A stretch of 64,000 bases of DNA from Algoriphagus yeomjeoni (lineage in GTDB: Bacteria; Bacteroidota; Bacteroidia; Cytophagales; Cyclobacteriaceae), in the NCBI RefSeq assembly GCF_003259505.1, contig NZ_QLLK01000004.1, forward strand, positions 62,001 to 126,000, written 5' to 3'. Numbering within the stretch: the first letter of the stretch is position 1; each line of letters starts with the position of its first letter. A model generated the notes under the pieces. The model was not told where the DNA came from. It did not search any database and was given only the letters and a program-made list of their open reading frames with translations. The translations under genes were made by a program, and so were the position numbers. Positions 35,100-51,867 of the stretch are shown here, piece by piece.

Positions 35100-38000
35100 T
35101 TATTCATCATCCCACTTTCTTAGATTTCTTGCGATTGCTTCATTTAGCTGACCTGTGTAAGGTTCACGCATCAGCTTCAAATGTGGTCCCAATATTTCTT
35201 CTTTATCCACAATATTTACCAAGGGTTCCCACCCAAACGTATGCTTAAATTCCCTAGGTGTGGTAATAATTAGCGTATCACATTCGATTTTTTCTGGCTT
35301 ATATGCAAGAATATATTTTTGCAAAAGGCCTGTATCCTTAATTAATGAAGGCTGTTTTGAACCTTTATTAATTTTCTTCAGCACTTTTTGAAGTAACACT
35401 GCGGGTTTCTTAAAGTAGTCCAAATAGGTGAAAATCTTTCGATAGCCACCTTTGCCAAAAGTTCTTGATTTATCAAAAAACAGCGGAGGGTCTATCATAA
35501 TCAAGTTGACCTGATCCCCTGCCTCAAGCAGTTGTTTAGCCAACTCAAACGCAACCACATTTCCTATGGAATAGGATAAGATTCTATATGGTCCGGCGCC
35601 TTGAATCATCCTAATTTCTTTAAGTCCAAGGCTAGCTATTTCAGCAATATTTTTGGGAACAGATTCCTTCACCAACTCAGGACTAACAGATAAAATACCG
35701 TAAACAGGATATTCTGCAGGCAAATGCCTGGTCAATTGACTATAAACGGTTTCATAATAAAATTCACTATGAATGCAGAAAAGTGGTTTCTTAGTTCCTA
35801 CTGTTTTAATAGGAATCACTCTGTTTATCGGTTTTAAATCTAATTCAATTACGTTTTTTTCACCATCAACTTTTGATGAAATCTCCCGAATTGAGTCTGT
35901 CATTTTGATGGGTTTTGAGAAGTTGTACCTTGAATTAATCTCCTCTTCTACCCTAGTCCATTCAAATCTAGAACCTCCATTTTTTTCAAAACTATCCCTA
36001 ACACCTATCAATTTTTGGCCAAGAAACTTCTCCCAAACTTTCAAAACCTCCAACTCAAGCATGTTTTGAGGCCTTAAGTATTCTTCATGGTGAAGAGATT
36101 TCACCAGGGTTTCAACCGTAGAATAGCGAAGAAACTGTGCTGGAGTTACTTTAATCCCAATATCTCTGCATCTGGCGATGATCCGAATACTTTGGAGAGA
36201 ATTCCCTCCAAGCTCATTGAAATCACGATTGACGGGAATTTCATCTACTCCCATAACATCCGCCCAAATACCAGCAATCTGACGTTCCAAATATGTAGAA
36301 GGATGTTTAAAAGTAGTAGTTATTGTTTTTGGTTTGGATAATGCAGTTTCAGATAGCGCTTTTAAATCAATCTTACCGTTTGGCAATAGCGGAAAATCCT
36401 CCATTGGTAGAAGAATATCAGGCACCATGAACCTTGGTAAATTTTGACGAAGGAAATTCTCAAATTCCTCCTCAAGGATATTTTCGCTTGATTTATAGGC
36501 TAAAACGATTTGTTGGTTGCTCCCATCTGTGACAAATGATATTGATGAAACTATACCGGGAAAGCGACTAGCTAACTCTTGAATCTCGGTCAGTTCAACT
36601 CTGTGTCCTCGGATTTTAATCTGATTATCTAATCTTCCTAGGTATTCTATCCATCCATTTTCCTGAATTCGCACTAAATCTCCGGTTCGATAAATCTTGC
36701 TCCATTCATCAGAAAAGCTATTTACTGTAAATTTTCCGACAGAGTCAGCCTCAGCTAGGTAGCCTTTGACAAGTCCCGCACCAGCAATACAGAGTTCGCC
36801 CGGAATGCCAGTAGGTACCAATTCCTGATTTTCATCCAATATGTAGGCTAAGGTGTTATTGCTTGCTAAACCTATGGGAACTCGATGAAATGAATCCCCT
36901 TCCATCACTTCCTGAACGGTACACCAAACCGTCCCTTCGGTAGGCCCATATTCATTAAAAAGACGGATGGTAGGGTGCTTTGCAAAGTGCAGTGCGATTA
37001 ACTCGTTTGGAAACTCCTCACCTGCTAAGATTACAACTTGGAGTTCCTTTCTGTCACTGTCCCTACCCTGCAAAAGTGCTTGATAAAGCGAAGGCAACAT
37101 TAAGGTATGGCTGACCTCTTCCCTACTGATAATCGACGAAAGTGCTGCTGTATTTAAGGTTTCATTATCCTGAGTAATAACCAATTTCCCTCCTGTACAC
37201 AATGACCAGAAAATTCCTGCCACCGAGCTATCAAAAGAAAAAGAAGACAAAAGTAAAAATGAACTTGGGGACGCTTTGTAATACGCTTTCCTAGCAGCTA
37301 CAGAAGAGAATAAATTATCATGACTAACTAGTACACCTTTAGGCTTATTTGTACTTCCAGAAGTGAAAATTAGGTAAGCATTTCGCGAACTATTCGATTC
37401 TTTATCTAACTGAAAGTCATTAGTATAGTTATAATCAAGTGAATCTATTTCTATTGATTCGAACTCTTTTTTGAGCGAAACTTTGGAGTGTAATAATCCA
37501 CGATGCGTAAGGACATATTTTGCTCCTGACTCCTGTAGATATTGAAGAATTCGTTGATCTGGATATTCAGGATCCAAAGGCAAATATGGCCTGCCAAATT
37601 TCAGTATTGCGAGAATAGAAACAACAAAATCCACAGAGCGTTCCATGTAAATTCCTATGGGTTGATCTTGGGCTATAGCATGCTTTTTAAGTTCAAATGC
37701 TATTGCAGAACTTCTATGATCTAACTCTCCATAGGTCAGCCGGTCAGTACCACAAACTACCGCTGTTTGATCCTTCTTAGCTGACAGGATTTGGAGAATT
37801 TCGGTTATTACATTTCCATTAATTTCAGGATGAAAGGCATGACTTAACCCTGAAGTGAGGAAAACTCTTTCTTCCTCTGATAGTAAAGAATAGCGTTTTA
37901 ATTCCTGGTCAGGATTATCGCAAATTTCTTCCAAAAGTGTTGTAAAATGGGAAGCAAGCCTTTCTGCAAAGGATGAACTAAACAAATCAGTACTATATTC

Positions 38001-39263
38001 TATTCCAATTTGGTAAGTCCCTTTATTCAATCCAAAGTGATGAAGTGTCAAATCAAATTTGGACACATCTAAATCCAGCACTTCAAAATCTACAGGAATT
38101 CCATTGTTCCGAAAAGGATTCTCTCCTGCCGAATGGCCTACAAACATGGCTTGAAAAAGCGGATTGTAACTTTGATCCTTTCGTTCTTTGGATGAAATGA
38201 GCAATTCCTCATAGCTTTTCTTTTGAGATGAGATAGCTCCGAGAACGTCTTTTTTTACTTCATTTAAAAGATCCTTAAATGATTTTTTCGACTCCAAACT
38301 ACCACTAATTACTTGTGTATCTACAAAATAGCCAACCATGGATTTGAACTCTTCTTTGTCTCTATTTAAGACAGGAATACCCACATTTACAGCATCACTT
38401 TTTCCATATCTTCCTAAAAGAATTTGAAAACAGGCAAGAAAGAGATTGAAATCAGTTGTTTGAAGTGATTTGAGTGTCTTTCCAACTTTAGGACTTAATC
38501 TATCCGGAAGCGAAAATCTGGACAACTTCCCTTCATAACTAGGATTTGCTGGTCTTGGATAATCGAGTGGCAACTCCAAAAATGATTCATTGAAAGGCTC
38601 AGATGAAACTTGGTTGCCTGTTTCTTTTTGAAGTTCTTTTTGCCAAACTGTGTAATCCTTGTATTGAAATTCTGGTACTTCAGATTCAAGTGATTTATGC
38701 TTATATAATTTGGCAAAATCTTCCCTTAAGATTCCCATCGACCATGCATCAATGATGATATGATGAAAGGTCATACCTATAGTAAAATCACCGTTCTCTA
38801 ATTGGCAAACAGCAACTCGGATAAGTGAATCAGTTTCCAAACGAAAAGGCTTGTTAGCTAAACTCTTAAGCCATTTTTTGGCATCCAAATCATTCTTAAT
38901 TTCATCAGATATTTCCAAGCTGAATTTCTTTCCCCTTCGAAATACCATTGCTGGTTCTTCTTGGAAAATCACATAATTACTAGCTAAAACCTGATGCTTT
39001 TCAACTAGGTCTCCCAAAGCTGAAATAAAGTTGGCCTGATCGAAAGATCCATCCTGAAAATACCAGATTTCAGAATAATTGTAAACAGCACTTTCAGGAT
39101 TTTTCTGATAAACAAAGAAAAGCCTACGCTGAGCTATGGACAGCGGATAATAGTCAGAAAGAGGAGCTTTAGGGATTCGCTCCTCTTCCGATAACTCTTC
39201 TTCAAGGTTTTGCTCGTTTAAATTGAGCCACTGATCTAACAGATCATCCGAATTCCCCTCCAT
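35100..39263 (-). CDS. NRPS: C-A-T-(degenerate T)-TE termination module
   Basis: A 1387-residue synthetase. The condensation domain has HHIIID at 167-172. The A domain carries FTSGSTNKPKG (near 632), NEYGPTEGT and YRTGDLV. The residues I align with the substrate pocket are D-S-A-M-I-A-E-V-W, which I cannot assign to an amino acid. The carrier domain has LGGNS (Ser near 1020). A second carrier-like stretch around 1080-1115 has KNGGSRFEW where Arg replaces the attachment Ser, so it is probably inactive. A C-terminal thioesterase has its nucleophile in SYSIGN (near 1229). The enzyme should add one residue and release the product. It is followed by the PPTase gene after 18 bp. Confidence 0.9.
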   Translation of the reverse strand: MEGNSDDLLDQWLNLNEQNLEEELSEEERIPKAPLSDYYPLSIAQRRLFFVYQKNPESAVYNYSEIWYFQDGSFDQANFISALGDLVEKHQVLASNYVIFQEEPAMVFRRGKKFSLEISDEIKNDLDAKKWLKSLANKPFRLETDSLIRVAVCQLENGDFTIGMTFHHIIIDAWSMGILREDFAKLYKHKSLESEVPEFQYKDYTVWQKELQKETGNQVSSEPFNESFLELPLDYPRPANPSYEGKLSRFSLPDRLSPKVGKTLKSLQTTDFNLFLACFQILLGRYGKSDAVNVGIPVLNRDKEEFKSMVGYFVDTQVISGSLESKKSFKDLLNEVKKDVLGAISSQKKSYEELLISSKERKDQSYNPLFQAMFVGHSAGENPFRNNGIPVDFEVLDLDVSKFDLTLHHFGLNKGTYQIGIEYSTDLFSSSFAERLASHFTTLLEEICDNPDQELKRYSLLSEEERVFLTSGLSHAFHPEINGNVITEILQILSAKKDQTAVVCGTDRLTYGELDHRSSAIAFELKKHAIAQDQPIGIYMERSVDFVVSILAILKFGRPYLPLDPEYPDQRILQYLQESGAKYVLTHRGLLHSKVSLKKEFESIEIDSLDYNYTNDFQLDKESNSSRNAYLIFTSGSTNKPKGVLVSHDNLFSSVAARKAYYKASPSSFLLLSSFSFDSSVAGIFWSLCTGGKLVITQDNETLNTAALSSIISREEVSHTLMLPSLYQALLQGRDSDRKELQVVILAGEEFPNELIALHFAKHPTIRLFNEYGPTEGTVWCTVQEVMEGDSFHRVPIGLASNNTLAYILDENQELVPTGIPGELCIAGAGLVKGYLAEADSVGKFTVNSFSDEWSKIYRTGDLVRIQENGWIEYLGRLDNQIKIRGHRVELTEIQELASRFPGIVSSISFVTDGSNQQIVLAYKSSENILEEEFENFLRQNLPRFMVPDILLPMEDFPLLPNGKIDLKALSETALSKPKTITTTFKHPSTYLERQIAGIWADVMGVDEIPVNRDFNELGGNSLQSIRIIARCRDIGIKVTPAQFLRYSTVETLVKSLHHEEYLRPQNMLELEVLKVWEKFLGQKLIGVRDSFEKNGGSRFEWTRVEEEINSRYNFSKPIKMTDSIREISSKVDGEKNVIELDLKPINRVIPIKTVGTKKPLFCIHSEFYYETVYSQLTRHLPAEYPVYGILSVSPELVKESVPKNIAEIASLGLKEIRMIQGAGPYRILSYSIGNVVAFELAKQLLEAGDQVNLIMIDPPLFFDKSRTFGKGGYRKIFTYLDYFKKPAVLLQKVLKKINKGSKQPSLIKDTGLLQKYILAYKPEKIECDTLIITTPREFKHTFGWEPLVNIVDKEEILGPHLKLMREPYTGQLNEAIARNLRKWDDE

Positions 39264-39274
39264 ATTCTAAACTA

Positions 39275-40501
39275 CTAAAGGATTCCTTTTTCGAGTAACC
39301 AAGTATGGATTTTCATGTCATAGCCGAAAGCTCTCTCAATAATCCAGTAGGTAGAAATTGCGATTAGCAAGAGTGAGAATCCTACTACAATGATGTAGTA
39401 AAGTTTAACCCTGCTCAATAAGAATAGGATCGGAAATGCAATTAGAATTATTGCTAACTGACCTAATTCTACACCAATATTAAAACCTACCAATGAATAA
39501 ACCAGGTACTCCCCTCCTCTGGACTGCTCAGCCAAAACTGATGCAAATCCGAAACCATGAAATAAGCCGAAGATCAAGATGATCAACCATTCCTTTTTAT
39601 TCAGAAAGGGAACAATATTGTGAAATGCTGCCATACCTATAGATATAGCGATGATAGATTCCACTAATCTGGATGGCAAATTAACGAGTTCTAAAGCGGC
39701 TAAACTGAGCGTTACGGAATGAGCCAAAGTGAAAATGGTGATGATTTTAACTACTGAAATTAGAGCAATCTTAAAACTTTTTTCAGGTTCAAAATCCGTG
39801 TATTTGATGCCAAGCCAGCGTCTTTTTGGATCTTTTGGCCTGTAGACAATAACCGATGGAATCAGCAGAGCAATTAGAAAAAGAATGTGGTCTAACCCGA
39901 TCCAAATGTGATAAACACCGGATTTTACCATTGCCAAAAAGCCAGTCAATACCGAGCCTTCTTCTATATCCAGCGTTTGGTTTGGGTTGGAGGTGCCAAA
40001 AATCAAGGAAGGAAGGGATTCATTAGCTAAAACCCCTGTTTTCCAATTTCTTTCAATATGTAGTAATGACTCATGACTACTTAACTCTTCCACAAAAATC
40101 TGATCATATACCTCAAGTTCAGAGGGTACAGTGTCCATATTTTCAACCTTAAAATTAAATAGAAGGAAATCGTCATCTTTTAATTGCAAGAGACCTAGTT
40201 CAGTAAAAGTGAGCGCGTGATCTCCATTTACCGAATTGAATTGTAAATGATCTGTAAGGTACTTTATGATTGCTTGAACCTTTGGGTTATTTTTATCTGG
40301 AATAGCTCCATGAGCAAAATCATAGTTAAAAACTTCTTTTATATCAGACTTCTTCAATTCTACCCGACAATCCATTTGACCCTCATATATACTCAAGTAA
40401 ATGTAATTCTGATTTGGTCTGTGGGCCTCTACTCTCAAAACGCTTAGTGTAAAAAATACCAAGAATAGAAAACATGTTTTAATAAAATTAGTTGTTGTCA
40501 T
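39275..40501 (-). CDS. HupE/UreJ-like membrane permease
   Basis: A 408-residue protein: a signal sequence, an extracytoplasmic domain to about residue 180 starting HRPNQNYIYLS, then about seven membrane segments. Its motifs GLDHILFLIAL, FTLAHSVTLSLAAL and GLFHGFGFA, each with His, fit the HupE/UreJ_2 family, whose members are implicated in nickel, cobalt or other metal movement. It heads the leftward operon, ending 11 bp before the NRPS gene, and is divergent from the ornithine cyclodeaminase/TonB receptor unit. That placement suggests it handles the metal delivered by the cluster product; the metal is unknown. Confidence 0.85.
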   Translation of the reverse strand: MTTTNFIKTCFLFLVFFTLSVLRVEAHRPNQNYIYLSIYEGQMDCRVELKKSDIKEVFNYDFAHGAIPDKNNPKVQAIIKYLTDHLQFNSVNGDHALTFTELGLLQLKDDDFLLFNFKVENMDTVPSELEVYDQIFVEELSSHESLLHIERNWKTGVLANESLPSLIFGTSNPNQTLDIEEGSVLTGFLAMVKSGVYHIWIGLDHILFLIALLIPSVIVYRPKDPKRRWLGIKYTDFEPEKSFKIALISVVKIITIFTLAHSVTLSLAALELVNLPSRLVESIIAISIGMAAFHNIVPFLNKKEWLIILIFGLFHGFGFASVLAEQSRGGEYLVYSLVGFNIGVELGQLAIILIAFPILFLLSRVKLYYIIVVGFSLLLIAISTYWIIERAFGYDMKIHTWLLEKGIL

Positions 40502-40638: not shown

Positions 40639-41721
40639 ATGAAGAAGAATCAGGAGAGTATAATTATTGACAGTCACGCGGTAAATCAGATTATAAATAC
40701 AATAGGTTTAAACCAGGTGATGGACAAGCTTATAGCCAACTTAGAAAAAGCACTTTTAGGCTATTCAAAAGAAGAAACTGAAATTCCAATTCGATCAGGA
40801 TTCAACTATAAAAAACCCTTTCTTGGCTTAGTAGAGTGGATGCCGGTGATGAAAAAGGGTGAAGACGTTTTAATTAAAGTTGTTGGTTACCATCCTGAAA
40901 ATCCAGAAATTTTTAAAATTCCAACCATTTTATCTACCATTTCATCTTATGATGTACATACTGGACATTTAAATTTTTTGGTAGACGGGGTATTATTGAC
41001 AGCCCTTCGCACGGGAGCTTCCAGTGCTATCGCCAGTAAAATGATGGCTAAAAAAGACTCTAAAGTTTTGGGAATTATTGGTTGCGGAGCACAGTCGGTT
41101 CCACAGATTCATGCCATTTCTAGGCTTTTTGCTATTGAGGAAATTTTAATTTACGATACCGACCAACCTTCCATGGAAAATTTGGAAGAACGAATTGCAC
41201 CAATAAATCTTGGTATTTCACCACAATCTTCAACTATAGCTGACATAATTTCAAAATCAGATATCGTTTGTACTGCCACCTCTATTGCACCTGAAAAGGG
41301 TCCACTTTTTTATGAATTTACGGTCAAACCTCATCTTCACATTAATGCTGTAGGGGCAGATTTCCCGGGAAAATTTGAACTGCCTAAATCTCTTTTAGAA
41401 TCTGCCAATGTGTGTCCTGACTTTCTAGAGCAAGCAATTTTAGAAGGGGAATGTCAGCAGCTTAAATCATCGGACATAGGTCCTAGCTGGATTGAGTTGA
41501 TTCAGGATGATAAATTGAAAAATAAATATCAGGGCGAACTAAGTGTTTTCGATTCTACAGGTTGGGCTTTGGAAGACCAAGTAGTCGCAAAACTTTTTTC
41601 TGACTACGCTCAAGAGTTAGGATTAGGCACTAAAATGAATATAGAATCCTATTCTTCTGATGAAAAAAATCCTTACGGAGTTTTCCTACCTCAACGGGTA
41701 CAACCGGAAATTTTAGATTAA
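40639..41721 (+). CDS. ornithine cyclodeaminase/mu-crystallin family protein
   Basis: A 360-residue protein of the OCD/mu-crystallin superfamily. The Rossmann NAD site is G-I-I-G-C-G at 145-150, preceded by ALRTGASSAIASKMM, the conserved substrate/nucleotide region. VGADFPGKFEL and DSTGWALEDQ are family signatures. Members turn L-ornithine into L-proline plus ammonia, lysine into pipecolate, or reduce imines. In this cluster the simplest role is supplying a cyclic amino acid (proline) to the stand-alone A domain and carrier. An SbnB-like or reductive role is possible. First gene of the rightward unit. Confidence 0.85.
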   Translation: MKKNQESIIIDSHAVNQIINTIGLNQVMDKLIANLEKALLGYSKEETEIPIRSGFNYKKPFLGLVEWMPVMKKGEDVLIKVVGYHPENPEIFKIPTILSTISSYDVHTGHLNFLVDGVLLTALRTGASSAIASKMMAKKDSKVLGIIGCGAQSVPQIHAISRLFAIEEILIYDTDQPSMENLEERIAPINLGISPQSSTIADIISKSDIVCTATSIAPEKGPLFYEFTVKPHLHINAVGADFPGKFELPKSLLESANVCPDFLEQAILEGECQQLKSSDIGPSWIELIQDDKLKNKYQGELSVFDSTGWALEDQVVAKLFSDYAQELGLGTKMNIESYSSDEKNPYGVFLPQRVQPEILD

Positions 41722-41810: not shown

Positions 41811-44051
41811 ATGCTTAAAAATTTACTTTCCTTGCTTGCAATTGCCTTTGTTGGCGTTTTTTCTGCCCATGGGCAGGCGTTCAAAGGTCGGGTCCTAGAT
41901 AGTGGAAGTTCTCCTATCATCGGTGCTTACCTTATTCATGGTGATTCTGAGCATCATGCGCATACCAATGATTCTGGATACTTTGTGTTACCCGGAGTAT
42001 CTGCAGGTGACACGCTACAAATCAGCCATATAGGATTTGAAAGGCAAATCTATGTGATAGAAGATTTGACAAAAGAAGTAACAATCAGAATGAAAGATGC
42101 TGCCATTGAATTAGGTGAAGTGGTTTTCAGTCAAGACATAAATCCATTAAATACTTTATCTCGAATTGACCTCAAAACCAATCCGGTGAATACTTCTCAA
42201 GATATTTTGAGAAAAGTGCCTGGTCTTTTTATAGGCCAGCATGCCGGTGGTGGTAAAGCTGAGCAGATTTTCCTACGTGGTTTTGACATAGATCACGGTA
42301 CAGATATCAACATCACAGTAGATGGAATGCCGGTAAATATGGTGTCCCATGCACATGGACAAGGCTATTCAGATTTACATTTCCTGATTCCTGAAACTAT
42401 TGAGCGTGTAGATTTCGACAAAGGTCCATATAATGCTGATAAAGGTAATTTTGCGACAGCAGGTTATGTAAACTTCCAGACGAAAAGAGGCCTTGATAAA
42501 AGTTCTGTGAGTGTTCAGGGTGGTAGCTTCAACAGCATGAGAACTGTAGGTCTTTTTAAATTGATTAATGATAAAAAAAGCAATGCTTACATCGCAACTG
42601 AATATCTTTCCAACGATGGACCTTTTGAATCAAGCCAGAATTTTAGCCGCTTAAACTTGATGGGTAAATATGGGCTGACATTAGAAGATGGTAGCGATAT
42701 CAGTTTGCTAGCTTCCTATTTTACCAGTAAGTGGGATGCGTCAGGCCAAATCCCTGTCAGAGCTGTTGAAAGTGGTCAAATCACAGAATTTGGTGCCTTG
42801 GATGATACTGAGGGCGGGGTTACCAGCAGAATGAATTTGGCATTGAATCACACCAAGCAAGTTAATGATCGACTTTTTGTAAAAAATAATGCCTATTACT
42901 CAACTTATGATTTTGAGCTTTTCTCCAACTTCACATTTTTCCTAGAAGACTCTATCAATGGAGATCAAATCAGACAACGTGAAAACAGAGCGATTTTTGG
43001 AGCAGAAAGTCAGGTGACTTACAGCAACGCATTCAGTGGTGGTGACTATGCACTTCAGTTTGGAGTTGGTGTTAGAAATGACTTTATCCGAGACAATGAA
43101 TTAGCCGGAACAAAAAATAGAGATAGCGTAAGATTTGTGACTCAGCGTGGTGATATCACCGAGTCAAACTATTACAGTTATGTGAATTTTGACTTATTTC
43201 TGAGCAAACTTCGAATAAATCCTGGAATCAGAGTAGATTATTTCAAGTACCTATATCAGGATCAACTGACACCTGAATACGATCCAGCTTCCCTAACCGC
43301 AGCTGTTGTCAGTCCAAAACTAAATTTCATATACACAGTAAATCCTAGCGTTCAGGTCTTTTTAAAGTCAGGCATAGGCTTTCACTCCAACGATACCCGT
43401 GTGGTTCTTGAAAGACCTAATAATGAATCGATATTGCCTAGAGGCTTTGGAGCTGACTTAGGTGGTAATTTCAAGCTTTCTCCTAGACTCATCGTCAATG
43501 GTGCTTTATGGTATCTTGGATTGGAGCAGGAGTTTGTTTACGTGGGTGATGCCGGAATCGTAGAAGCCGGCGGCCGTACTGCACGTAAAGGAGTTGATTT
43601 GGGGCTACGCTGGCAGGCAAATAACTGGATTTATCTTGATGGTGATTTCACGTATTCTTACGCCAGAAGTATTGACGATCCTGAGGGAGATAATTTGATT
43701 CCTTTGGCTCCAAGAATTACTACGACTGGTGGTTTGAGTGTAGAGAAAAATGGATTTGCTGGTGCTCTCAGAGCACGATACTTGCAGGACAGACCTGCCA
43801 ACGAAGATAATTCGGTAGTTGCTGAAGGATATACTATCTTGGATTTAAATGCGAGTTACAGTTTCAGTAACTTTTCCGTAGGATTTTTCATACAGAATTT
43901 GTTGAACTCTGATTGGAAAGAAACTCAATTTGATACAGAATCAAGAATCCGACTTGCAAATGGACAATTGGAACCTTCTCCAGTGAGTGAAATCCATTTT
44001 ACCCCTGGAACTCCATTTAATTTCACAGGATTTGTCAAATTTTCATTTTAA
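41811..44051 (+). CDS. TonB-dependent receptor of the NRPS cluster
   Basis: A 746-residue outer-membrane protein: signal peptide ending at AHGQA, a carboxypeptidase-regulatory-like domain (about 22-105), a plug domain with FLRGFDIDHGTDINITVDG and the His motif SHAHGQGY, and a beta-barrel ending in aromatic FVKFSF. The His-rich plug motif resembles receptors that I associate with HupE-like permease genes, as is the case here. It likely imports a metal complex, perhaps the product of this cluster. The acyl-CoA-dehydrogenase-like gene starts 5 bp later, so receptor and biosynthesis genes share one transcript. Confidence 0.9.
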   Translation: MLKNLLSLLAIAFVGVFSAHGQAFKGRVLDSGSSPIIGAYLIHGDSEHHAHTNDSGYFVLPGVSAGDTLQISHIGFERQIYVIEDLTKEVTIRMKDAAIELGEVVFSQDINPLNTLSRIDLKTNPVNTSQDILRKVPGLFIGQHAGGGKAEQIFLRGFDIDHGTDINITVDGMPVNMVSHAHGQGYSDLHFLIPETIERVDFDKGPYNADKGNFATAGYVNFQTKRGLDKSSVSVQGGSFNSMRTVGLFKLINDKKSNAYIATEYLSNDGPFESSQNFSRLNLMGKYGLTLEDGSDISLLASYFTSKWDASGQIPVRAVESGQITEFGALDDTEGGVTSRMNLALNHTKQVNDRLFVKNNAYYSTYDFELFSNFTFFLEDSINGDQIRQRENRAIFGAESQVTYSNAFSGGDYALQFGVGVRNDFIRDNELAGTKNRDSVRFVTQRGDITESNYYSYVNFDLFLSKLRINPGIRVDYFKYLYQDQLTPEYDPASLTAAVVSPKLNFIYTVNPSVQVFLKSGIGFHSNDTRVVLERPNNESILPRGFGADLGGNFKLSPRLIVNGALWYLGLEQEFVYVGDAGIVEAGGRTARKGVDLGLRWQANNWIYLDGDFTYSYARSIDDPEGDNLIPLAPRITTTGGLSVEKNGFAGALRARYLQDRPANEDNSVVAEGYTILDLNASYSFSNFSVGFFIQNLLNSDWKETQFDTESRIRLANGQLEPSPVSEIHFTPGTPFNFTGFVKFSF

Positions 44052-44055
44052 TTGA

Positions 44056-45201
44056 ATGGAATTTAGTTGGAGCCCCGAGCAATTACAATTACGCCAAAAA
44101 GCTAAATTATTCTCCGAAGCAAACCTGAATGAGGATGTTTCACAAAAAGAACAGAATAATCTTTTTCCGCTAGAAGAATGGAAAAAGTGTGCTGAATTCG
44201 GAGTTCTGGGATGGCCTTTTAGCAAAGAATATGGTGGCAGTGGATTTGATCCACTGACCACTGTTCTTATGCTTGAGGGCTTAGGCTATGGCTGCAAAGA
44301 CAATGGCCTCCCCTTTTCTCTCAATTCCCAGCTTTGGAGTACTCAAGTAGCTATAAATGCCTTTGGTACAGAAGAGCAAAAGCAAAAATATCTTACCAGA
44401 CTTATTTCAGGAGCTATTGGTGCTTTTGGAATTACTGAAGAAGGATCTGGTTCTGATACCTATGCGTTAGAAATGACCGCAGAGAAAGTTGATGGAGGAT
44501 ACATCTTAAATGGAGAAAAGCATTACATCACCCTTGCTCCTCTCTGTGAAATAGCGGTAGTTTTTGCGACCACGAATATCAAATTAGCCAAATGGGGAAT
44601 CACAGCTTTTATTGTGGATACCACAATGGATGGATTTACTAGAAGTGAGGTTCGTGACAAAGTCGGTATGCGAACTACTCCTATGGGAAATCTCTACTTA
44701 AAGAATTGCTTTGTCCCTGATGAAAACAGGCTAGGAAGAGAAGGTTCTGGACTTAGTCTTTTCAGCTCGGCGATGGAGTCAGAGCGTGGATATATCTTTG
44801 CAAGTCAAATAGGTAGATTGGAGAAACAACTCGAGCTTTCTATAGCTTATGCCAATACAAGAATGACCTTCGGAAAAAGTATTGGTAAAAACCAATCCAT
44901 ATCTAATCGTATTGCCAATATGAGACTTCGTCTGGAAACCTCAAAGATGCATCTTTACAAAGTCGCATACTTGGATCAGCATGACTTGCCTTTGATGAAG
45001 GAAGCAGCCATGGCCAAATTATATATCAGTGAAGCATTTGTAGAATCAAGCATGGATTTTATCCGGATATTTGGTGCCAAAGGAGTCGTTACCGAATATG
45101 AAGTTGAGCGTGATTTACGTGATGGTTTAGGCGGATTGATTTATTCTGGTACTTCAGATATTCAGAGAAATATTATTGCCAAATTGGATGGCTTGTTATG
45201 A
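44056..45201 (+). CDS. acyl-CoA dehydrogenase-like aminoacyl-carrier oxidase
   Basis: A 381-residue flavoprotein of the acyl-CoA dehydrogenase fold (GAFGITEEGSGSD, then NGEKHYITLAP, and the C-terminal GTSDIQRNI). At the usual catalytic Glu position near the C-terminus there is Ser364 (YSGTS). A Glu is present in the ESERG segment (E243), the position used by isovaleryl-CoA dehydrogenase. Pyrrole-forming oxidases of the PltE/RedW type have this fold and oxidise prolyl-carrier to pyrrolyl-carrier. It overlaps the stand-alone A domain gene by 4 bp (ATGA) and shares a unit with a carrier protein gene, so that role is likely. Confidence 0.85.
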   Translation: MEFSWSPEQLQLRQKAKLFSEANLNEDVSQKEQNNLFPLEEWKKCAEFGVLGWPFSKEYGGSGFDPLTTVLMLEGLGYGCKDNGLPFSLNSQLWSTQVAINAFGTEEQKQKYLTRLISGAIGAFGITEEGSGSDTYALEMTAEKVDGGYILNGEKHYITLAPLCEIAVVFATTNIKLAKWGITAFIVDTTMDGFTRSEVRDKVGMRTTPMGNLYLKNCFVPDENRLGREGSGLSLFSSAMESERGYIFASQIGRLEKQLELSIAYANTRMTFGKSIGKNQSISNRIANMRLRLETSKMHLYKVAYLDQHDLPLMKEAAMAKLYISEAFVESSMDFIRIFGAKGVVTEYEVERDLRDGLGGLIYSGTSDIQRNIIAKLDGLL

Positions 45202-46730
45202 ATTCAACTACTGAAATATTAAGTAGACTCGTATCTGTAGTTGCTTCGACAACTCCTGATAAGGTTGCTTTCAGTAGTGTTGACGGCAAGATTACCTACG
45301 GTGAGTTAGACAGAAAGAGCAACCAATTGGCAAATTGGCTTGTAACTCACGGTGTGAGTAAGGGTGATCGTGTAGGAATACTTATAGGGAAAAATATTTT
45401 CACAGCTTATGCTATCTACGGAATTCTAAAGGCAGGTGCAGTGCTTGTGGCTCTAGATCCAAGTCAAACTACTGAAAGAATTGACGCTATTATTGCAGAT
45501 TGTGATATTGAAGTGATTATTTCAATCTCTGCACATCAACGAGTTGTTAATCATATAAATACAAAAAAAATAACTGTATTAGGGTCTAATCAAGGTTTCT
45601 CTTGGGAAGAAGTTTTTACCCAAGCTAGCGATACAACTTTAGAATTAACCATTAAACCTTCTGATCAGGCTTACATACTTTATACTTCTGGATCCACGGG
45701 GGAGCCAAAAGGAATTGTCCACACCCACGCCAGCGGTATGGCTTATGCAAGGCAATCCTCACTCCTTTACGAAGTATCTCCAGACGATGTAATTGGGAAT
45801 GTTGCATCACTTCATTTTGATCAAAGTACCTTTGGCTATTTCTCAGCGATGTATGCTGGCTGCAGTTCTTATATTTTCGGAACAAGCGAATTGGTGATGC
45901 TAGGTAGCTTTTGCGAAGCTGTTAGAACGAATAGCATTTCAATACTATATTCAGTTCCATCCCTTTTCATTGCTTTAGTTTCAGGTAATTTTGATCTCAA
46001 CTTCCCATCCGTAAGATGGATCAAATACGGCGGAGAGTCTTTTCCCCCGAATAAATTAAATGAGTTGCATTCAAAGATTCCTCAAGCTAAACTTTCAAAT
46101 GTATACGGTCCTGCAGAGGTAAATCAGTGTACTTATTTCAACTTTAAGGGTCCAGTTGATCCGGAAAAAGAAGTTCCAATTGGTCGAGTTTGGGATAATA
46201 CCTCCTATTTGATTTTGGATGAAACTAATCAGCCCGTCCAGCTAGATGAGCAAGGAGAATTATTGATTCACTCTGCCACCATGATGTTGGGCTATTGGAA
46301 TAATGACTCTTTGAATGAAAAGTCATTTTATCTAGCCAACATCGAAGGAAAACACATTAAATTTTACAGGACCGGTGACTTCGTTTATTTAAACAGAAAT
46401 GAAGAACTTGTCTTTGTAGGAAGAATGGATAGACAGGTGAAAATTAGTGGAATAAGAGTAGAACTTGGTGCCATAGAGCAGGTTTTCAGAAAATGTGAGG
46501 AAGTAAAAGATGTGGCTGTTTTCACTTCAAAATCAAATGGAATGAGAGAACTTTGCGCGGCTATCGTTCTAGCAGAAAGCTCCTATGAACTAGAAAACCT
46601 AAGAAAAAAGCTTTTCAAACTATTGCCTAAAACAAGTATTCCCAAACACCTTTTCGCAGTGCAATCCCTACCTCATTCGGATAATGGCAAAGTGCACTAC
46701 CGGAAGTTGGAAAAACAGTTTTCAAATTGA
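45198..46730 (+). CDS. stand-alone NRPS adenylation enzyme
   Basis: A 510-residue A domain without condensation or carrier parts. Core motifs are LYTSGSTGEPKG (A3), NVYGPAEVNQ (A5), FYRTGDFV (A7), GRMDRQVKISGIRVELG (A8) and the A10 region NGKVHYRKL with its catalytic Lys. The pocket residues I align read D-Q-F-S-K-G-V-Q-C, which differs from the proline codes I know for pyrrole loading enzymes. By context (oxidase before it, free carrier two genes after it) it should load the starter amino acid onto the carrier. Proline is my best guess from the cyclodeaminase, not from the code. Confidence 0.88.
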   Translation: MNSTTEILSRLVSVVASTTPDKVAFSSVDGKITYGELDRKSNQLANWLVTHGVSKGDRVGILIGKNIFTAYAIYGILKAGAVLVALDPSQTTERIDAIIADCDIEVIISISAHQRVVNHINTKKITVLGSNQGFSWEEVFTQASDTTLELTIKPSDQAYILYTSGSTGEPKGIVHTHASGMAYARQSSLLYEVSPDDVIGNVASLHFDQSTFGYFSAMYAGCSSYIFGTSELVMLGSFCEAVRTNSISILYSVPSLFIALVSGNFDLNFPSVRWIKYGGESFPPNKLNELHSKIPQAKLSNVYGPAEVNQCTYFNFKGPVDPEKEVPIGRVWDNTSYLILDETNQPVQLDEQGELLIHSATMMLGYWNNDSLNEKSFYLANIEGKHIKFYRTGDFVYLNRNEELVFVGRMDRQVKISGIRVELGAIEQVFRKCEEVKDVAVFTSKSNGMRELCAAIVLAESSYELENLRKKLFKLLPKTSIPKHLFAVQSLPHSDNGKVHYRKLEKQFSN

Positions 46731-46751: not shown

Positions 46752-47513
46752 ATGCTTAGTCAGGATCAAATTAATCAGTTCGAAAAGCAAGGCTTTCTAC
46801 ATCTAGCTAGTTGGTTGGAGGGAGAAAAACTTGAGCAAGTTATTCAGGCTATTGAAAAAATAGAGCAAATGGATGGCCCCGAGTTTTTTAGAGAAAAGAC
46901 TTCTAAGAAAATCAGGACTGTATTTGCTCCGGAAAAATTCGATTCCTCTATTTTGGATCTAATAAAGAATTCTCCGCTTCCTTACGAAATAAAGCAGCTT
47001 TTAAAGTCAGACTTTTACCTTTTCCAATCAAAACTTAATACTAAAGCATGCCTCGAATCGGGGGTGTGGAGTTGGCATCAAGATTTTAAGTTTTGGAGAG
47101 AAGATGGAATGTTGGAACCAAAAGCTTTAACGGTTGCGATAATGCTCACTGATGTAGATGTGGCAAATGGACCGATCTTGGCCATTCCCTCCTCTCAACA
47201 GGAAGGTGAGGTAAACTCTTATCTGAATAACCCTGATGGTGTGCATGATGAGAATCTGAAATATATGATCAGTCAAAGTACCTTAGCCAGTATGGTGGAT
47301 AAGTATAGTCCAATTATCCCATTTACAGGAAAAGCAGGTGATGTGCATATTTTCCACTGTAATTTGCTTCATAGCTCGTACCAAAACATGGGTGTGGTGG
47401 ATAGAAAACTACTTATGTTTACCTTCAACCCTATCGAAAATATCCAAGAAGTCTCAGATCCAAGACCTGAATACATGGTCAAGAGAGACACATCAGCAAT
47501 AAATCCAAACTAA
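46752..47513 (+). CDS. PhyH/EctD-like Fe(II)/2-oxoglutarate dioxygenase
   Basis: A 253-residue protein of the phytanoyl-CoA dioxygenase family. The iron triad is H109 and D111 in SWHQDF plus a distal His in FHCNLLHSS (probably H207). The central KFWREDGMLEPKALTVAIML and GPILAIPSSQQ strongly resemble ectoine hydroxylase (EctD), and relatives hydroxylate proline. It should hydroxylate a free or carrier-bound amino acid in the pathway. The stop overlaps the start of the carrier gene by one base (TAATG). Confidence 0.87.
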   Translation: MLSQDQINQFEKQGFLHLASWLEGEKLEQVIQAIEKIEQMDGPEFFREKTSKKIRTVFAPEKFDSSILDLIKNSPLPYEIKQLLKSDFYLFQSKLNTKACLESGVWSWHQDFKFWREDGMLEPKALTVAIMLTDVDVANGPILAIPSSQQEGEVNSYLNNPDGVHDENLKYMISQSTLASMVDKYSPIIPFTGKAGDVHIFHCNLLHSSYQNMGVVDRKLLMFTFNPIENIQEVSDPRPEYMVKRDTSAINPN

Positions 47514-47740
47514 TGCTCGAACAAATTACAAACTATATAAATAAGGAAATTGATATTCTTGTCAGCCAAGAAGAGGAATTGCTTAGTAGTGGATTGATAG
47601 ATAGCATTACTATTATGAAACTTATTGCTCATTTGGAGGAAACCTATCAGATCAAAGTTCCACCTCAGGATATGGTCATTGAGAATTTCAATACCGTTTC
47701 ATCTATTAGAGATTACATTGCCCAACAGCAGAATAAATAA
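47513..47740 (+). CDS. stand-alone acyl/peptidyl carrier protein
   Basis: A 75-residue four-helix carrier. The phosphopantetheine site is Ser31 in SGLIDSITIM. It overlaps the dioxygenase gene by one base and precedes the NRPS start by 8 bp. It most likely carries the amino acid loaded by the stand-alone A domain while the oxidase and dioxygenase act on it, then hands it to the condensation domain of the next NRPS. Confidence 0.92.
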   Translation: MLEQITNYINKEIDILVSQEEELLSSGLIDSITIMKLIAHLEETYQIKVPPQDMVIENFNTVSSIRDYIAQQQNK

Positions 47741-47748
47741 TAAGCAGA

Positions 47749-50700
47749 TTGCAACTATCAAAGGATTCGAGCACTAGCCTCACAGGAAGTCAACAAAGTA
47801 TTTGGGCAAGTCAAAAATTCAACCCAAGCTCAACAGCAAATTATCTTCCCCATACATTTGAGTTTAGCGCAGCTATAGACCAAGAAGCTTTTAGCAAAGC
47901 TTTCAATCAACTTATTGCGCAAAATGACAGCCTAAGAACCGTCTTTCAAGAAGATGAAGATTCTAATGTGGCACAAATCGTTTTGGACACCATAGAATTT
48001 ATTTTATCTGTAGAAGAACTTGGTGAGCAAGACTCTGATTCTTTTATCAATCGTCGGGTACAAACTACCCTAGATCTACAAATCAGATGCTTTGATTCGA
48101 TTTTACTGAAGGTCAGTGATGATAAGTTTATTTGGTACCTCAATATCCATCATATTCTTGCCGACGCTTCCACATTTAAAGTGCTTTTTGATGAAATGTC
48201 TAAGCTTTATGAAGCTGAGCTAAAAGGTGAAAAAATTGAAGTCAATAATAAGACAAGCTTTGAATCTTATCGAGAGTTTGAATCCAAAAAAAGAGAAGAC
48301 AAGAATTCGACAGCGGCAGATTACTGGAAATCCAAAGGACAATTTCCAAGTAAGAACTTATCGCTTTATGGAAACCAAAAAGGCTTATCCAATTCTAAAG
48401 CTACCAGAGTAAGAATCCCATTTTCTGAAGATTTAAAGACCCTTTTTGAAGAAAAGCTTACTACCGATGGGTATCGCTCTTTTAATCCAGATCTGACAAA
48501 ATTCACTATTTGGGCAACACTATTTACAGCCTTTATTTCCCGGATAACAGCTGAGTCCGTGATTAGAATTGGAAGCCCCTTTCCTAATCGAAACCTAAGC
48601 AAATTCAAGAATACAGCAGGGTTACTAATTGAAGTGCTCCCCATAGACATTCAAGTAGATTCTGAGGATACATTCAAAAGTCTATTTGAAAAGGTTAGAC
48701 AGGAGTTATTTGACTTCTTTAAGAATGGTTATCCTGGTGCACAGACCATGGAAAGTTCTCGGGGAATCCACCTGATCGTAAATTATATCCCTCTTTATTT
48801 TGGAGATTTTGGCACTATTCCGACGAAGACAAATTGGCTATTTCCAGATCAACTAGACTCTGGTCATCAGGTACGTTTTCAGGCGTTTGATTTCAACAAT
48901 CAAGCTAATCTGGATTACTATTTCGATATCAATGAGGCTTACTTAACTCCAACTCAGGTGGAGCTTCTTCCTCGTCACTTTGAAAAACTAGTTAAAGGAT
49001 TTATTGCTGACGATCAATCAAAAATCACTGAAATAGGCTTAGTATCTGCTCAGGAAAAGGATAACCTAATTTCAAATGGTGACTTCGAAAAGCTAGCTAT
49101 TCCATCTCTTGATGATATGCTCAGAAGCTCATTTGAACAGAATTCAAATGTTACTGCGTTAGTGTTTGGAGAAGCTAGGCTCAGCTACCAGGAGCTAGAA
49201 ACTTTAGTAAAAAAGGCAAGTCAACTCCTTAAAAATAAAGGCGTTAATCCTCAGGATATCGTAGTACTTCACAAGCATAGATCTATAGAGTTTGTGCTAT
49301 TCGTTCTCGCTGTCTTAGACTTGAAAGCAACATTTGTCCCTGTCCCGGTGGATCTTCCCAAAAAACGGGTGGAAGGTATTTTGAAGGACTTAAAGCCTAG
49401 AGTGATTATCAGTGCGTCCCAGGAATTTGATGTTGATCAGCAGGTTATTGATATAAGTATTGAGGAGATTAAATCCCTTGAGCCGCTAGGTCAAGATTTG
49501 GCAACAAAAGCAGATTTTGATAGATCTGCCTATATTTTATTCACTTCTGGTTCTACGGGTGTTCCCAAAGGTGTTGAAGTTTCTTTAGCTTCTCTTTCAA
49601 ACTATGTGGTCGAAGCGCGAAACTTATACAGCAGAGATGAGGCGGTTGGTATGCCTTTCTTTACTTCAATCGGTTTTGATTTAACGATCACTTCTCTTTT
49701 TTTACCACTAATCACAGGTGGTACTATCCATATTTACCCTGAAGGAAAATCTGGTCCAGATGTTTCTATTTTGGAAGTCATTAAAAATCAGGAGATAAAT
49801 ACCATAAAGCTGACTCCCTCCCACGCGAAAATCATTCAGGAAAACGCCTTAAGTAAATCCAATATTAGAACTGTGATTTTCGGAGGGGAAAACCTGAAAA
49901 CAAGTCTTGCAAAATCTATCCAATCGAATCTCTCAGAAGGGTCCGAAATATTCAACGAATATGGCCCAACTGAGGCTACTGTGGGTTGTATTGTACATAA
50001 ATATGAATGTTCTGAAGAAAGCAATTCTGTTCCTATTGGCAAATCAATTGCTGGTTGCTTCTTCTATATTTTAGACGAGGGATTGAATCCGGTACCTCAG
50101 GGAGTGCAGGGTATATTATACCTAGGTGGTCATGTTTTAGCGAAGGGATATTGGAATAATGCTGCTAAAACATCCGAGTCTTTTATAAGTGATCCTTTTC
50201 AACCTGATCAAAAAATCTATAAAACTGGAGACTTGGTACGACTCAATGCTTCAGGGATTTTAGAATATTTCGGTAGAGTGGATGAGCAAATAAAGCTCAA
50301 TGGAGTCAGAATTGAAGCTGGAGAACTTGAAACATTAATGAATCAGTTCTCTACTATTGAGGAGGCCCATATTGTGGTGGCAGATTCGAATAGTGATTTG
50401 TTTGAAGCTCCAGATTTTCATTGCAAAAACTGTGGGATTCCTTCGAACTATCCGGATGCTGTTTTTAATGAAGAAGGTATCTGTAATCTCTGTGAATCCT
50501 TTGAGGAATATCAAAAAAACGTTTCCTCCTATTTCAAATCAATGGACAACCTCAGGTCAGAGATTTTGGGCTTGTCCAACCATGGGGAAAAAGAGTATGA
50601 TTGCTTAATGCTACTAAGTGGCGGAAAAGACAGTAGCTATGCGTTGGCAAAACTGGTAGAGCTTGATCTAAAAGTTCTTGCTTGGACCTTGGACAATGGT

Positions 50701-51867
50701 TTTATCTCGGACAATGCCAAAGAGAACATCAACAATACGGTCACTAAACTTGGTGTAGATCATATCTATGGGCGCACAGATGCCATGAATGCAATATTCA
50801 GGGATAGCTTGGAGAGACATCAAAATGTCTGTAATGGTTGCTTTAAAACTGTTTATACGCTCAGTACCCAATTAGCCTTGGAGAAAAATATCCCGGTTAT
50901 TGTGACAGGTTTATCTAGAGGACAGTTTTTTGAAACAAGATTGACAGAAGAACTTTTCTTAAAAGATCATTTTGACCCAAAGGATATTGATAAAATCATC
51001 CTTGAAACCAGGAAATCATATCATAGAAGTAAAGACGCCGTCAGTGAATACCTAGACGTATCCATGTTTGAGACTGATGAAGTATTCAGCAAGGTTTCTT
51101 TTGTGGATTTCTACCGCTTCAGTGACGTGAGTCTATCCGAAATGTACGAATACCTCGAAAATACAATTGGCTGGCAGCGACCTAAGGATACTGGGCGTAG
51201 TACAAATTGTATTATCAATGATCTTGGGATTTTTGTCCATAAAAGGAAAAAGGGATACCATAATTATGCCTTTCCGTATAGTTGGGATGTCCGAGTTGGG
51301 CATAAAAAACGTGAAGAAACGATCGACGAGCTTAATGATGAGCTTGGAGTTGAATCTATCAAAAAACTCATGGATGAAATCGGGCTGGAAGAGCAGGATG
51401 ATTCCAAAGAGATCAGAGCCTATTTCAAAGCGTCCTCCCAGGTCAATAAAAATGAGTTGGTGGACTATCTGAAGGCATATTTGCCAGCTAATATAATTCC
51501 TTCATCCTACATTCAAATCGACTCCTTTCCTTTAACCTCCAACGGTAAAGTAGACAAGCAGGCTCTTTTGAGAAAAGAAACCAAAAGCGCAACTCCAAAA
51601 TCTACACCTATAATAAAACCAAAAAACAAGATTGAAGAACTCGTACATAGTACTTGGTGCACAGTTTTGAAAATGGATGCTATCGATGTTACAGATTCAT
51701 TTATCCCACTAGGCGGAAATTCTCTTTCGGCTATTCGTATCGTTTCACTTTTAAGTAAACGCTTGAATCTGGAGATTTCTATCCAAGACTTTTTTGAGCA
51801 AGACTCTATCAGGAAACTATCGGCTGGCATAGAAGGAGAGATAAAAAAGCGAATGGGGATTTCATAA
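47749..51867 (+). CDS. NRPS C-A-T with A domain interrupted by a PP-loop ATPase
   Basis: A 1372-residue synthetase starting at TTG 47749. An in-frame stop lies 15 bp upstream and the C domain begins within 11 residues, so no ATG fits. C domain: HHILAD at 134-139. A domain: FTSGSTG at 598-604; pocket residues D644 L645 T648 K687 I710 G712 E737 V745 G746 K1267 give DLTKIGEVGK, one change from the asparagine code DLTKLGEVGK. Between A8 (about 841-860) and A9/A10 (NGKVDK near 1265) sits an insert of about 320 residues with CxxC at 892-895, 912-915 and 1028-1031 and the PP-loop SGGKDS at 957-962, resembling N-acetyl sugar amidotransferases. Carrier LGGNS has Ser1325. It should activate Asn and modify its side chain, perhaps to an amidine or thioamide. 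Confidence 0.92.
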   Translation: MQLSKDSSTSLTGSQQSIWASQKFNPSSTANYLPHTFEFSAAIDQEAFSKAFNQLIAQNDSLRTVFQEDEDSNVAQIVLDTIEFILSVEELGEQDSDSFINRRVQTTLDLQIRCFDSILLKVSDDKFIWYLNIHHILADASTFKVLFDEMSKLYEAELKGEKIEVNNKTSFESYREFESKKREDKNSTAADYWKSKGQFPSKNLSLYGNQKGLSNSKATRVRIPFSEDLKTLFEEKLTTDGYRSFNPDLTKFTIWATLFTAFISRITAESVIRIGSPFPNRNLSKFKNTAGLLIEVLPIDIQVDSEDTFKSLFEKVRQELFDFFKNGYPGAQTMESSRGIHLIVNYIPLYFGDFGTIPTKTNWLFPDQLDSGHQVRFQAFDFNNQANLDYYFDINEAYLTPTQVELLPRHFEKLVKGFIADDQSKITEIGLVSAQEKDNLISNGDFEKLAIPSLDDMLRSSFEQNSNVTALVFGEARLSYQELETLVKKASQLLKNKGVNPQDIVVLHKHRSIEFVLFVLAVLDLKATFVPVPVDLPKKRVEGILKDLKPRVIISASQEFDVDQQVIDISIEEIKSLEPLGQDLATKADFDRSAYILFTSGSTGVPKGVEVSLASLSNYVVEARNLYSRDEAVGMPFFTSIGFDLTITSLFLPLITGGTIHIYPEGKSGPDVSILEVIKNQEINTIKLTPSHAKIIQENALSKSNIRTVIFGGENLKTSLAKSIQSNLSEGSEIFNEYGPTEATVGCIVHKYECSEESNSVPIGKSIAGCFFYILDEGLNPVPQGVQGILYLGGHVLAKGYWNNAAKTSESFISDPFQPDQKIYKTGDLVRLNASGILEYFGRVDEQIKLNGVRIEAGELETLMNQFSTIEEAHIVVADSNSDLFEAPDFHCKNCGIPSNYPDAVFNEEGICNLCESFEEYQKNVSSYFKSMDNLRSEILGLSNHGEKEYDCLMLLSGGKDSSYALAKLVELDLKVLAWTLDNGFISDNAKENINNTVTKLGVDHIYGRTDAMNAIFRDSLERHQNVCNGCFKTVYTLSTQLALEKNIPVIVTGLSRGQFFETRLTEELFLKDHFDPKDIDKIILETRKSYHRSKDAVSEYLDVSMFETDEVFSKVSFVDFYRFSDVSLSEMYEYLENTIGWQRPKDTGRSTNCIINDLGIFVHKRKKGYHNYAFPYSWDVRVGHKKREETIDELNDELGVESIKKLMDEIGLEEQDDSKEIRAYFKASSQVNKNELVDYLKAYLPANIIPSSYIQIDSFPLTSNGKVDKQALLRKETKSATPKSTPIIKPKNKIEELVHSTWCTVLKMDAIDVTDSFIPLGGNSLSAIRIVSLLSKRLNLEISIQDFFEQDSIRKLSAGIEGEIKKRMGIS

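What the first reader, a model, noticed from the sequence alone, without database searches (positions are those of the whole stretch)
47749..51867. Asparagine-type NRPS A domain interrupted by a PP-loop ATPase with CxxC pairs
The sequence shows a full A domain (A3, A8, A10, code DLTKIGEVGK) split between A8 and A9 by about 320 residues holding SGGKDS and three CxxC pairs, like WbpG/PseA-type N-acetyl sugar amidotransferases. Embedded methyltransferases are known at this site; I know of no described PP-loop insert. Such enzymes turn an amide into an amidine, or related ones make thioamides (closthioamide CtaC), and the Asn side-chain amide is a fitting substrate. Inference: on-line amidine or thioamide formation.
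Basis: partly seen in the sequence, partly recalled or inferred. Interest (0 to 1): 0.93.

Follow-up and report, generated by a model that had tools for sequence, protein, structure and literature searches.

The report
Nitrile-forming insert in metallophore peptide synthetase
A peptide-building enzyme of an Algoriphagus bacterium carries, inside the domain predicted to select asparagine, an extra domain of the family known from albicidin and cystobactamid synthesis, which likely turns the bound asparagine into a nitrile; its gene cluster, found in many bacteria beside predicted metal-uptake genes, would make a metal-scavenging peptide of a kind not yet described.

Summary
In detail: window 47749-51867 encodes one open 1372-residue C-A-T module whose A domain (code DLTKIGEVG, Asn type) is split after A8 by a ~300-residue PP-loop domain. 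The same split stands in 112 long relatives aligned, so it is no assembly artefact. It is an AMDH (aminomutase/amide dehydratase) domain: a named Xanthomonas albilineans A-T protein (AlbIV architecture) has the same code, junction and eight cysteines, and 157 of 296 insert residues identical. In cystobactamid CysH such a domain makes beta-cyanoalanine from bound Asn and is needed for isoasparagine. Nitrile, not amidine or thioamide, is therefore most likely. Two things look new. (1) A CxxC...C triad, invariant in these inserts but rare in standalone N-acetyl sugar amidotransferases (3-4 of 25), resembles the [4Fe-4S] site of TtuA/LarE and could explain the reported, unexplained brown colour of CysH. 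(2) The host cluster, X-Asn*-His with TonB receptor and N-terminal-His HupE permease, recurs widely; among 245 genomes of one family insert and this HupE type occur in 8 each, together in 7. I infer an undescribed Cu/Ni/Co-type metallophore. No chemistry was tested.

The parts
47749..51867 (+). NRPS module C-A(insert)-T, 1372 aa
47776..49068 (+). Condensation domain, residues 10-440; H134 H135 D139 conserved in >=99% of 113 rows
49129..50376 (+). Adenylation core, residues 461-876, Asn-type code DLTKIGEVG
50413..51318 (+). Inserted AMDH-type PP-loop domain, residues about 889-1190
50422..50493 (+). Tetracysteine C892/C895/C912/C915, counterpart of the zinc site of the solved N-acetyl sugar amidotransferase
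50617..50634 (+). PP-loop SGGKDS, residues 957-962
50830..50841 (+). C1028-x-x-C1031, first two cysteines of the proposed [4Fe-4S] triad
51208..51210 (+). C1154, proposed third ligand of the triad
51412..51573 (+). C-terminal A subdomain after the insert, with A10 Lys1267
51640..51825 (+). Thiolation domain, residues 1298-1359, Ser1325
47513..47740 (+). Free-standing carrier protein, 75 aa
46752..47513 (+). PhyH-type 2-oxoglutarate oxygenase; in only 5 of the 82 sets compared
45198..46730 (+). Free-standing adenylation protein, likely for a cyclic imino acid
44056..45201 (+). Acyl-CoA dehydrogenase fold, closest solved relative prolyl-ACP dehydrogenase 4irn
41811..44051 (+). TonB-dependent receptor
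40639..41721 (+). Ornithine/lysine cyclodeaminase family, closest solved relative lysine cyclodeaminase
39275..40501 (-). HupE/UreJ_2 permease with a likely N-terminal His after its signal peptide
35100..39263 (-). Second NRPS, C-A-T-TE, His-type code DSALIAEVW
34398..35081 (-). 4'-phosphopantetheinyl transferase

Best explanation
The insert is an AMDH-type PP-loop domain that is predicted to dehydrate the side-chain amide of carrier-bound asparagine to a nitrile, giving beta-cyanoalanine, in an assembly line that likely makes a cyclic-imino-acyl-(modified Asn)-His metallophore. Shown here: the anatomy, the homology to the AlbIV-type insert, the Asn-type and His-type codes, and the linked TonB, HupE and carrier genes. 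Inferred: the A domain loads Asn on the T domain; the PP-loop adenylates the amide oxygen, which leaves as AMP; the cysteine triad holds a [4Fe-4S] cluster that assists. The carrier protein donates a proline- or pipecolate-derived acyl group, the second NRPS adds His, and its thioesterase releases the product. The receptor and HupE would take up the metal complex or its metal. Without a hydroxylase like CysJ, nitrile is the default; isoasparagine is the second possibility.
Against: No activity was tested. CysH itself was not retrieved, so identity to the one biochemically tested AMDH domain is indirect (AlbIV-CysH 69%, from PMC7966384). AMDH also serves as aminomutase, which leaves mass unchanged. 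A nitrile is a poor metal ligand (recalled), so why a metallophore would carry one is unexplained. Metal identity is unknown; TonB and HupE near an NRPS do not prove uptake of its product. 11 of 80 loci show neither gene, 4 of them among the 62 with long flanks. G458 has this HupE without the insert, G416 the insert without it. The triad could bind zinc or nothing, is not confined to AMDH domains (3-4 of 25 standalone rows have it), and CysH's authors saw no CxxCxxxC motif. The 53-row clade has 88% bootstrap only, and the tree program warned of long branches among the standalone rows.
Confidence: 0.72

Rival explanations
1. The insert acts mainly as an aminomutase and gives isoasparagine, so that a beta-amino acid residue stands before His.
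For: AMDH deletion in CysH abolished isoasparagine as well as nitrile products (PMC7966384); the window and four other sets carry a PhyH oxygenase that could stand in for the hydroxylase. A beta-residue before His would chelate metal better than a nitrile (inference).
Against: CysH alone gave nitrile in vitro; no albicidin with isoasparagine had been identified (PMC7966384) and the AlbIV-type row lies in the window's clade; PhyH is in only 5 of 82 sets.
Confidence: 0.18
2. One reading: the insert makes an amidine from the Asn amide with ammonia, as WbpG-type enzymes do, possibly ring-closing onto the preceding carbonyl to a bleomycin-like aminopyrimidine next to His.
For: Closest named family WbuX and closest fold 8wex; Asn*-His order recalls the bleomycin pyrimidine-His unit (recalled).
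Against: Below the WbuX cut-off; separate clade with mostly different residues at the triad; homologues with known products give nitrile or isoasparagine.
Confidence: 0.06
3. The insert makes a thioamide with a sulfur donor held on the [4Fe-4S] cluster, as TtuA and LarE move sulfur.
For: Triad and fold resemble TtuA, NcsA and [4Fe-4S] LarE; thioamides are good copper ligands (recalled).
Against: The AMDH relatives with known products use no sulfur there; no sulfur-donor gene was recognised among the recurring neighbour families, though several of these were not annotated by any search.
Confidence: 0.04

Closest known systems
AMDH domain of cystobactamid CysH
   Same: Inserted in an Asn-specific A domain, ~38 kDa, SGGKD motif, acts on carrier-bound Asn (from PMC7966384 passages)
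   Different: CysH is a stand-alone A-T that loads another module in trans; the window's A domain sits in line behind its own C domain, in a TonB/HupE cluster. CysH sequence not compared here.
AlbIV of albicidin (P0320, named X. albilineans, A-T, 910 aa; that it is AlbIV is inferred from species and architecture)
   Same: Code DLTKIGEVG, junction 37 against 36 residues after A8, all eight cysteines, 157/296 insert residues identical
   Different: Stand-alone A-T; product an aryl-amide antibiotic
N-acetyl sugar amidotransferase WbuX/WbpG (8wex)
   Same: Fold, PP-loop, tetracysteine
   Different: Free-standing enzymes of sugar metabolism; CxxC...C triad in only 3-4 of 25 rows; score 134.6 under cut-off 203.2
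TtuA, NcsA and [4Fe-4S] LarE
   Same: PP-loop fold; CxxC aligned with that of 8cnz
   Different: Sulfur transferases to tRNA or cofactor; 12-21% identity in the listed rows
ArtA/NitB and QueC/ToyM nitrile-forming enzymes
   Different: Free-standing; ArtA is argininosuccinate-synthetase-like (PMC13060819 reference list)
Anglerase-HupE proteins (PMC12537917)
   Same: Signal peptide, N-terminal His domain, HupE/UreJ-2 permease
   Different: Described for Pseudomonadota and Actinomycetota; the term NRPS does not occur in that paper's main text

Membership tests
AMDH domain (CysH/AlbIV type) | Inserted in an Asn-specific A domain | tested here: met
   A code DLTKIGEVG in window; 71 of 80 read A domains identical, the other 9 one change away
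AMDH domain (CysH/AlbIV type) | Sequence homology to the AlbIV insert at the same junction | tested here: met
   157/296 identical, same eight Cys; shared clade
AMDH domain (CysH/AlbIV type) | SGGKD ATP-binding motif | tested here: met
   SGGKDS 957-962
AMDH domain (CysH/AlbIV type) | Sequence identity to CysH itself | not tested
   No row named CysH among the 120 listed in each
AMDH domain (CysH/AlbIV type) | Dehydrates or isomerises carrier-bound Asn | not testable with these tools
   Needs enzyme assay
WbuX N-acetyl sugar amidotransferase | Curated score cut-off of TIGR03573 (203.2 bits) | tested here: not met
   134.6 bits; 138.3
WbuX N-acetyl sugar amidotransferase | Tetracysteine CxxC-Xn-CxxC | tested here: met
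   C892 C895 C912 C915
[4Fe-4S] PP-loop enzymes (TtuA/NcsA/LarE type) | Three cysteines CxxC...C | tested here: met
   C1028 C1031 C1154 100% in 113 rows; 120 of 120 AMDH-like proteins. That three cysteines hold the cluster in TtuA and LarE is recalled.
[4Fe-4S] PP-loop enzymes (TtuA/NcsA/LarE type) | Bound iron-sulfur cluster | not testable with these tools
   CysH reported dark brown (PMC7966384)
Nonribosomal metallophore cluster | Uptake-type genes linked to the NRPS | tested here: met
   HupE or TonB in 69 of 80 loci; co-occurrence in 245 genomes
Nonribosomal metallophore cluster | Product binds metal | not testable with these tools
   Product unknown

The most novel reading that the evidence does not exclude
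AMDH domains are iron-sulfur PP-loop amide dehydratases, a sugar-amidotransferase fold with a TtuA-like [4Fe-4S] site, and a main use of them in nature is not antibiotics but an unrecognised, widespread family of X-(cyano-Ala or iso-Asn)-His metallophores for copper, nickel or cobalt, taken up through a TonB receptor and an N-terminal-His HupE permease in Bacteroidota, cyanobacteria and Roseobacters.
Probability: 0.4. Interest if true: 0.85.

Novelty: new member of a known kind. Interest (0 to 1): 0.55.

Why it matters
The domain family is known, but its catalytic mechanism and cofactor were left open by the authors of the CysH study (PMC7966384). The conserved CxxC...C triad gives a concrete, testable cofactor hypothesis. 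The cluster, if it makes a metallophore, would be a common metal-acquisition route, mostly of Bacteroidota, that I did not find described in ten paper searches, and it would give the AMDH domain an ecological role beyond two antibiotic families.

Tried and rejected
Assembly artefact joining two genes: rejected, same frame in many genomes. Ordinary sugar amidotransferase fused by chance: rejected by the clade and the shared code and junction. Amidine or thioamide: kept as rivals, low. Triad as a mark of the embedded form alone: I first read that way, but it printed only the two commonest residues and, through repeated names, only 4 of the 8 embedded rows; the recount shows Cys in 3, 3 and 4 of 25 standalone rows at the three positions, so the triad is enriched, not exclusive. 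Metal-responsive operator between HupE and the next gene: exact palindromes sought in 42 intergenic stretches, 40 results printed; none in the window, none common to all, though L077 and L085 share one and L054 and L058 have similar ones. Solved relative of HupE: none up to E 10. TonB receptor: weak matches of the plug region to BtuB, colicin I receptor, PirA, CntO and others, no metal assigned. A solved CysH or AlbIV: none in the profile search. Bleomycin-like aminopyrimidine: idea only, folded into the amidine rival.

Limits: one search kept the best 80 of 311 loci, and its two search patterns contain the triad cysteines, so triad conservation in those loci is partly by construction, from which the other triad counts come, do not share this fault. 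Lists: 120 of 2015, of 706, of 565. Alignment A3 used 45 of 81 possible rows and A4 28 of 79 (window plus the 80 and 78 loci that gave a row; thinned by hand). In one search the label 'hupE_cluster' was given to all 44 locus rows of A3, the window and Roseovarius, whether or not HupE lies in the fetched stretch; 14 rows were in no group. The HupE N-terminal His was read by a loose pattern, 55 of 57, no signal-peptide program was run; the two misses show A-H by eye. In one search nine further genomes matched at weaker E-values (about 1e-26 to 1e-38, several only in part) and were not counted as this HupE type; G424 (47%) and G546 (42%) were not counted as this insert type, and neither has this HupE. 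Coordinates of the models were not available, so sulfur distances were not measured.
Full report
OBSERVATION. Window 47749-51867 is one open frame of 1372 residues with condensation, adenylation and thiolation domains and, between A8 and A10, a stretch that NCBIfam scores as WbuX, N-acetyl sugar amidotransferase (residues 892-1209, E 5.3e-39, 134.6 bits, cut-off 203.2). In 113 aligned rows (112 relatives over 1300 aa and the window) all eight insert cysteines are invariant, and the PP-loop SGGKDS, A10 Lys1267 and T-domain Ser1325 are at least 99% conserved; the insert is visibly more conserved than its surroundings. The A code is DLTKIGEVG in 96 of 113 rows and one residue off in the other 17. 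The genome is probably an Algoriphagus: the best database hit (98% over the insert) is named A. yeomjeoni.

WHAT IT IS. A survey of A-domain codes says, in the passages I read, that DLTKIGEVGK also serves beta-cyanoalanine in albicidin, whose A domain holds a 342-residue insert of the same superfamily (PMC12283262). The cystobactamid study (PMC7966384, passages) names the homologous CysH insert AMDH: CysH with Asn loses 18 Da, CysH without AMDH does not; deletion of the domain in vivo abolishes nitrile and isoasparagine products; the AlbIV and CysH domains are 69% identical; the homologues its authors found all sat in Asn-type A domains, none linked to a known metabolite. I compared the window with P0320, a 910-residue A-T protein named X. 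albilineans: code DLTKIGEVG, all eight cysteines, the same junction, 157 of 296 insert residues identical. In a 77-row tree the 65 AMDH-like rows form one side of a 97/97 branch against 12 standalone WbuX rows, and P0320 lies in the same 53-row group as the window (88/98); the program warned of long branches among the standalone rows. So the insert belongs to a described kind. CysH itself I could not retrieve.

CYSTEINE TRIAD. CysH is dark brown as purified; its authors found no CxxCxxxC motif and left the cofactor open. In the window family C1028-x-x-C1031 and C1154 are invariant. In the recount, all 8 embedded rows and all 120 AMDH-like proteins of the second search have the three cysteines, among them free AMDH-condensation fusions; of 25 standalone amidotransferases 3 have Cys at 1028, 3 at 1031 and 4 at 1154. 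The triad is thus strongly enriched in, but not confined to, AMDH domains. P0320 has it. HMMER aligns the CxxC with that of [4Fe-4S] LarE 8cnz. That three cysteines hold the cluster in TtuA and LarE is recalled. I infer a [4Fe-4S] site; no model coordinates were available to measure sulfur distances.

SURROUNDINGS. Next to the NRPS stand a carrier protein (47513-47740), a free A protein, an acyl-CoA-dehydrogenase-fold protein closest to prolyl-ACP dehydrogenase 4irn (373.9 bits), a cyclodeaminase closer to lysine cyclodeaminase (279.9 bits) than to ornithine cyclodeaminase (127.0 bits), a TonB receptor, a HupE permease and a second NRPS C-A-T-TE on the other strand. Its code DSALIAEVW is a His code in PMC12283262; the 44 second-NRPS A domains read give DSAL(I/M/V)A, 42 of them in full and 2 cut short. 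A Roseovarius plasmid encodes both modules in one protein in the order Asn*-His, second code DSALIAEVW. The free A protein's code varies with the presence of cyclodeaminase and dehydrogenase, so the first residue likely varies while Asn*-His stays.

DISTRIBUTION AND METAL LINK. A genome scan found 311 loci, best 80 kept: mostly Bacteroidota, also Balneolota, cyanobacteria, Acidobacteriota and others. Of the 80, HupE is in 56, TonB in 60, either in 69, carrier in 55, His-type module in 43, a His-rich small protein in 38, dehydrogenase in 35, cyclodeaminase in 28; of the 62 with long flanks, HupE 49, TonB 52, either 58. The His-rich protein has a median of 7.9% His against 2.2% for the other ORFs. 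The HupE proteins show a His right after a signal-like stretch (55 of 57 by pattern), as in 'anglerase' HupE proteins that bind copper and other metals (PMC12537917, passages). In 245 genomes of the window's family, inserts of at least 61% identity occur in 8, this HupE type (E <= 1e-90) in 8, both in 7 (Fisher 6.6e-12, uncorrected for kinship; 1.8e-10 without the window's genome); in 6 of the 7 the two lie on one contig, 11 to 13 kb apart. G403, outside that sample, has both about 11 kb apart. Against: G458 has the HupE without the insert, G416 the insert without it. HupE of any kind is common (231 of 245 genomes); it is the window's long type that goes with the insert. In a phylum-wide sample the embedded form, judged by frame length, was in 2 of 395 genomes, so it is patchy.

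MECHANISM. Most likely: Asn is adenylated and loaded; the insert adenylates the amide oxygen and eliminates AMP to a nitrile; condensation with the donor on the carrier protein, transfer to the His module, release by TE. Everything from loading on is inferred, the insert's act from CysH. Why a metallophore would carry a nitrile is not explained; isoasparagine, or further reaction of the nitrile, would be chemically easier to square with metal binding.

VERDICT. Ordinary in the sense that the insert type is known; of interest for the proposed iron-sulfur triad and for a widespread, metal-linked cluster.

Noticed in passing
L113:12202-18124: Streptomyces plasmid: an AMDH-like domain fused to a condensation-like domain, not embedded in an A domain; separate A-T protein and asparagine synthase next door. 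Similar fusions in Pseudomonas and other Actinobacteria.
   Followed up: partly
L004, L005, L007, L024: Standalone N-acetyl-sugar-amidotransferase-like frames with a CxxC after the PP-loop: a subgroup that may share the proposed metal site.
   Followed up: no
L112:1-21466: Roseovarius pelagicus plasmid: the cluster sits beside HisF, HisH and NeuD-type sugar genes, the usual company of true N-acetyl sugar amidotransferases (the last is recalled).
   Followed up: no
Neighbour families 8 and 12: By eye, an MGT-type glycosyltransferase of about 445 aa in 16 loci and a methyltransferase of about 263 aa in 8 loci near the NRPS genes: possible tailoring; no call annotated them.
   Followed up: no
G424:C1:2699847-2700734 and G546:C8:21668-22549: Divergent inserts (47% and 42%) in genomes without this HupE type: probably another AMDH product.
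   Followed up: no
L012, L018, L020, L028: Standalone WbuX-like frames of 669-680 aa, much longer than usual: fused to something not identified.
   Followed up: no
G591:C174:1380-2606: HupE copy with one in-frame TAG.
   Followed up: no
window 51949-53415: Sodium-coupled anion symporter (DASS) directly after the NRPS; in 4 of 82 sets only, so likely not part of the cluster.
   Followed up: partly
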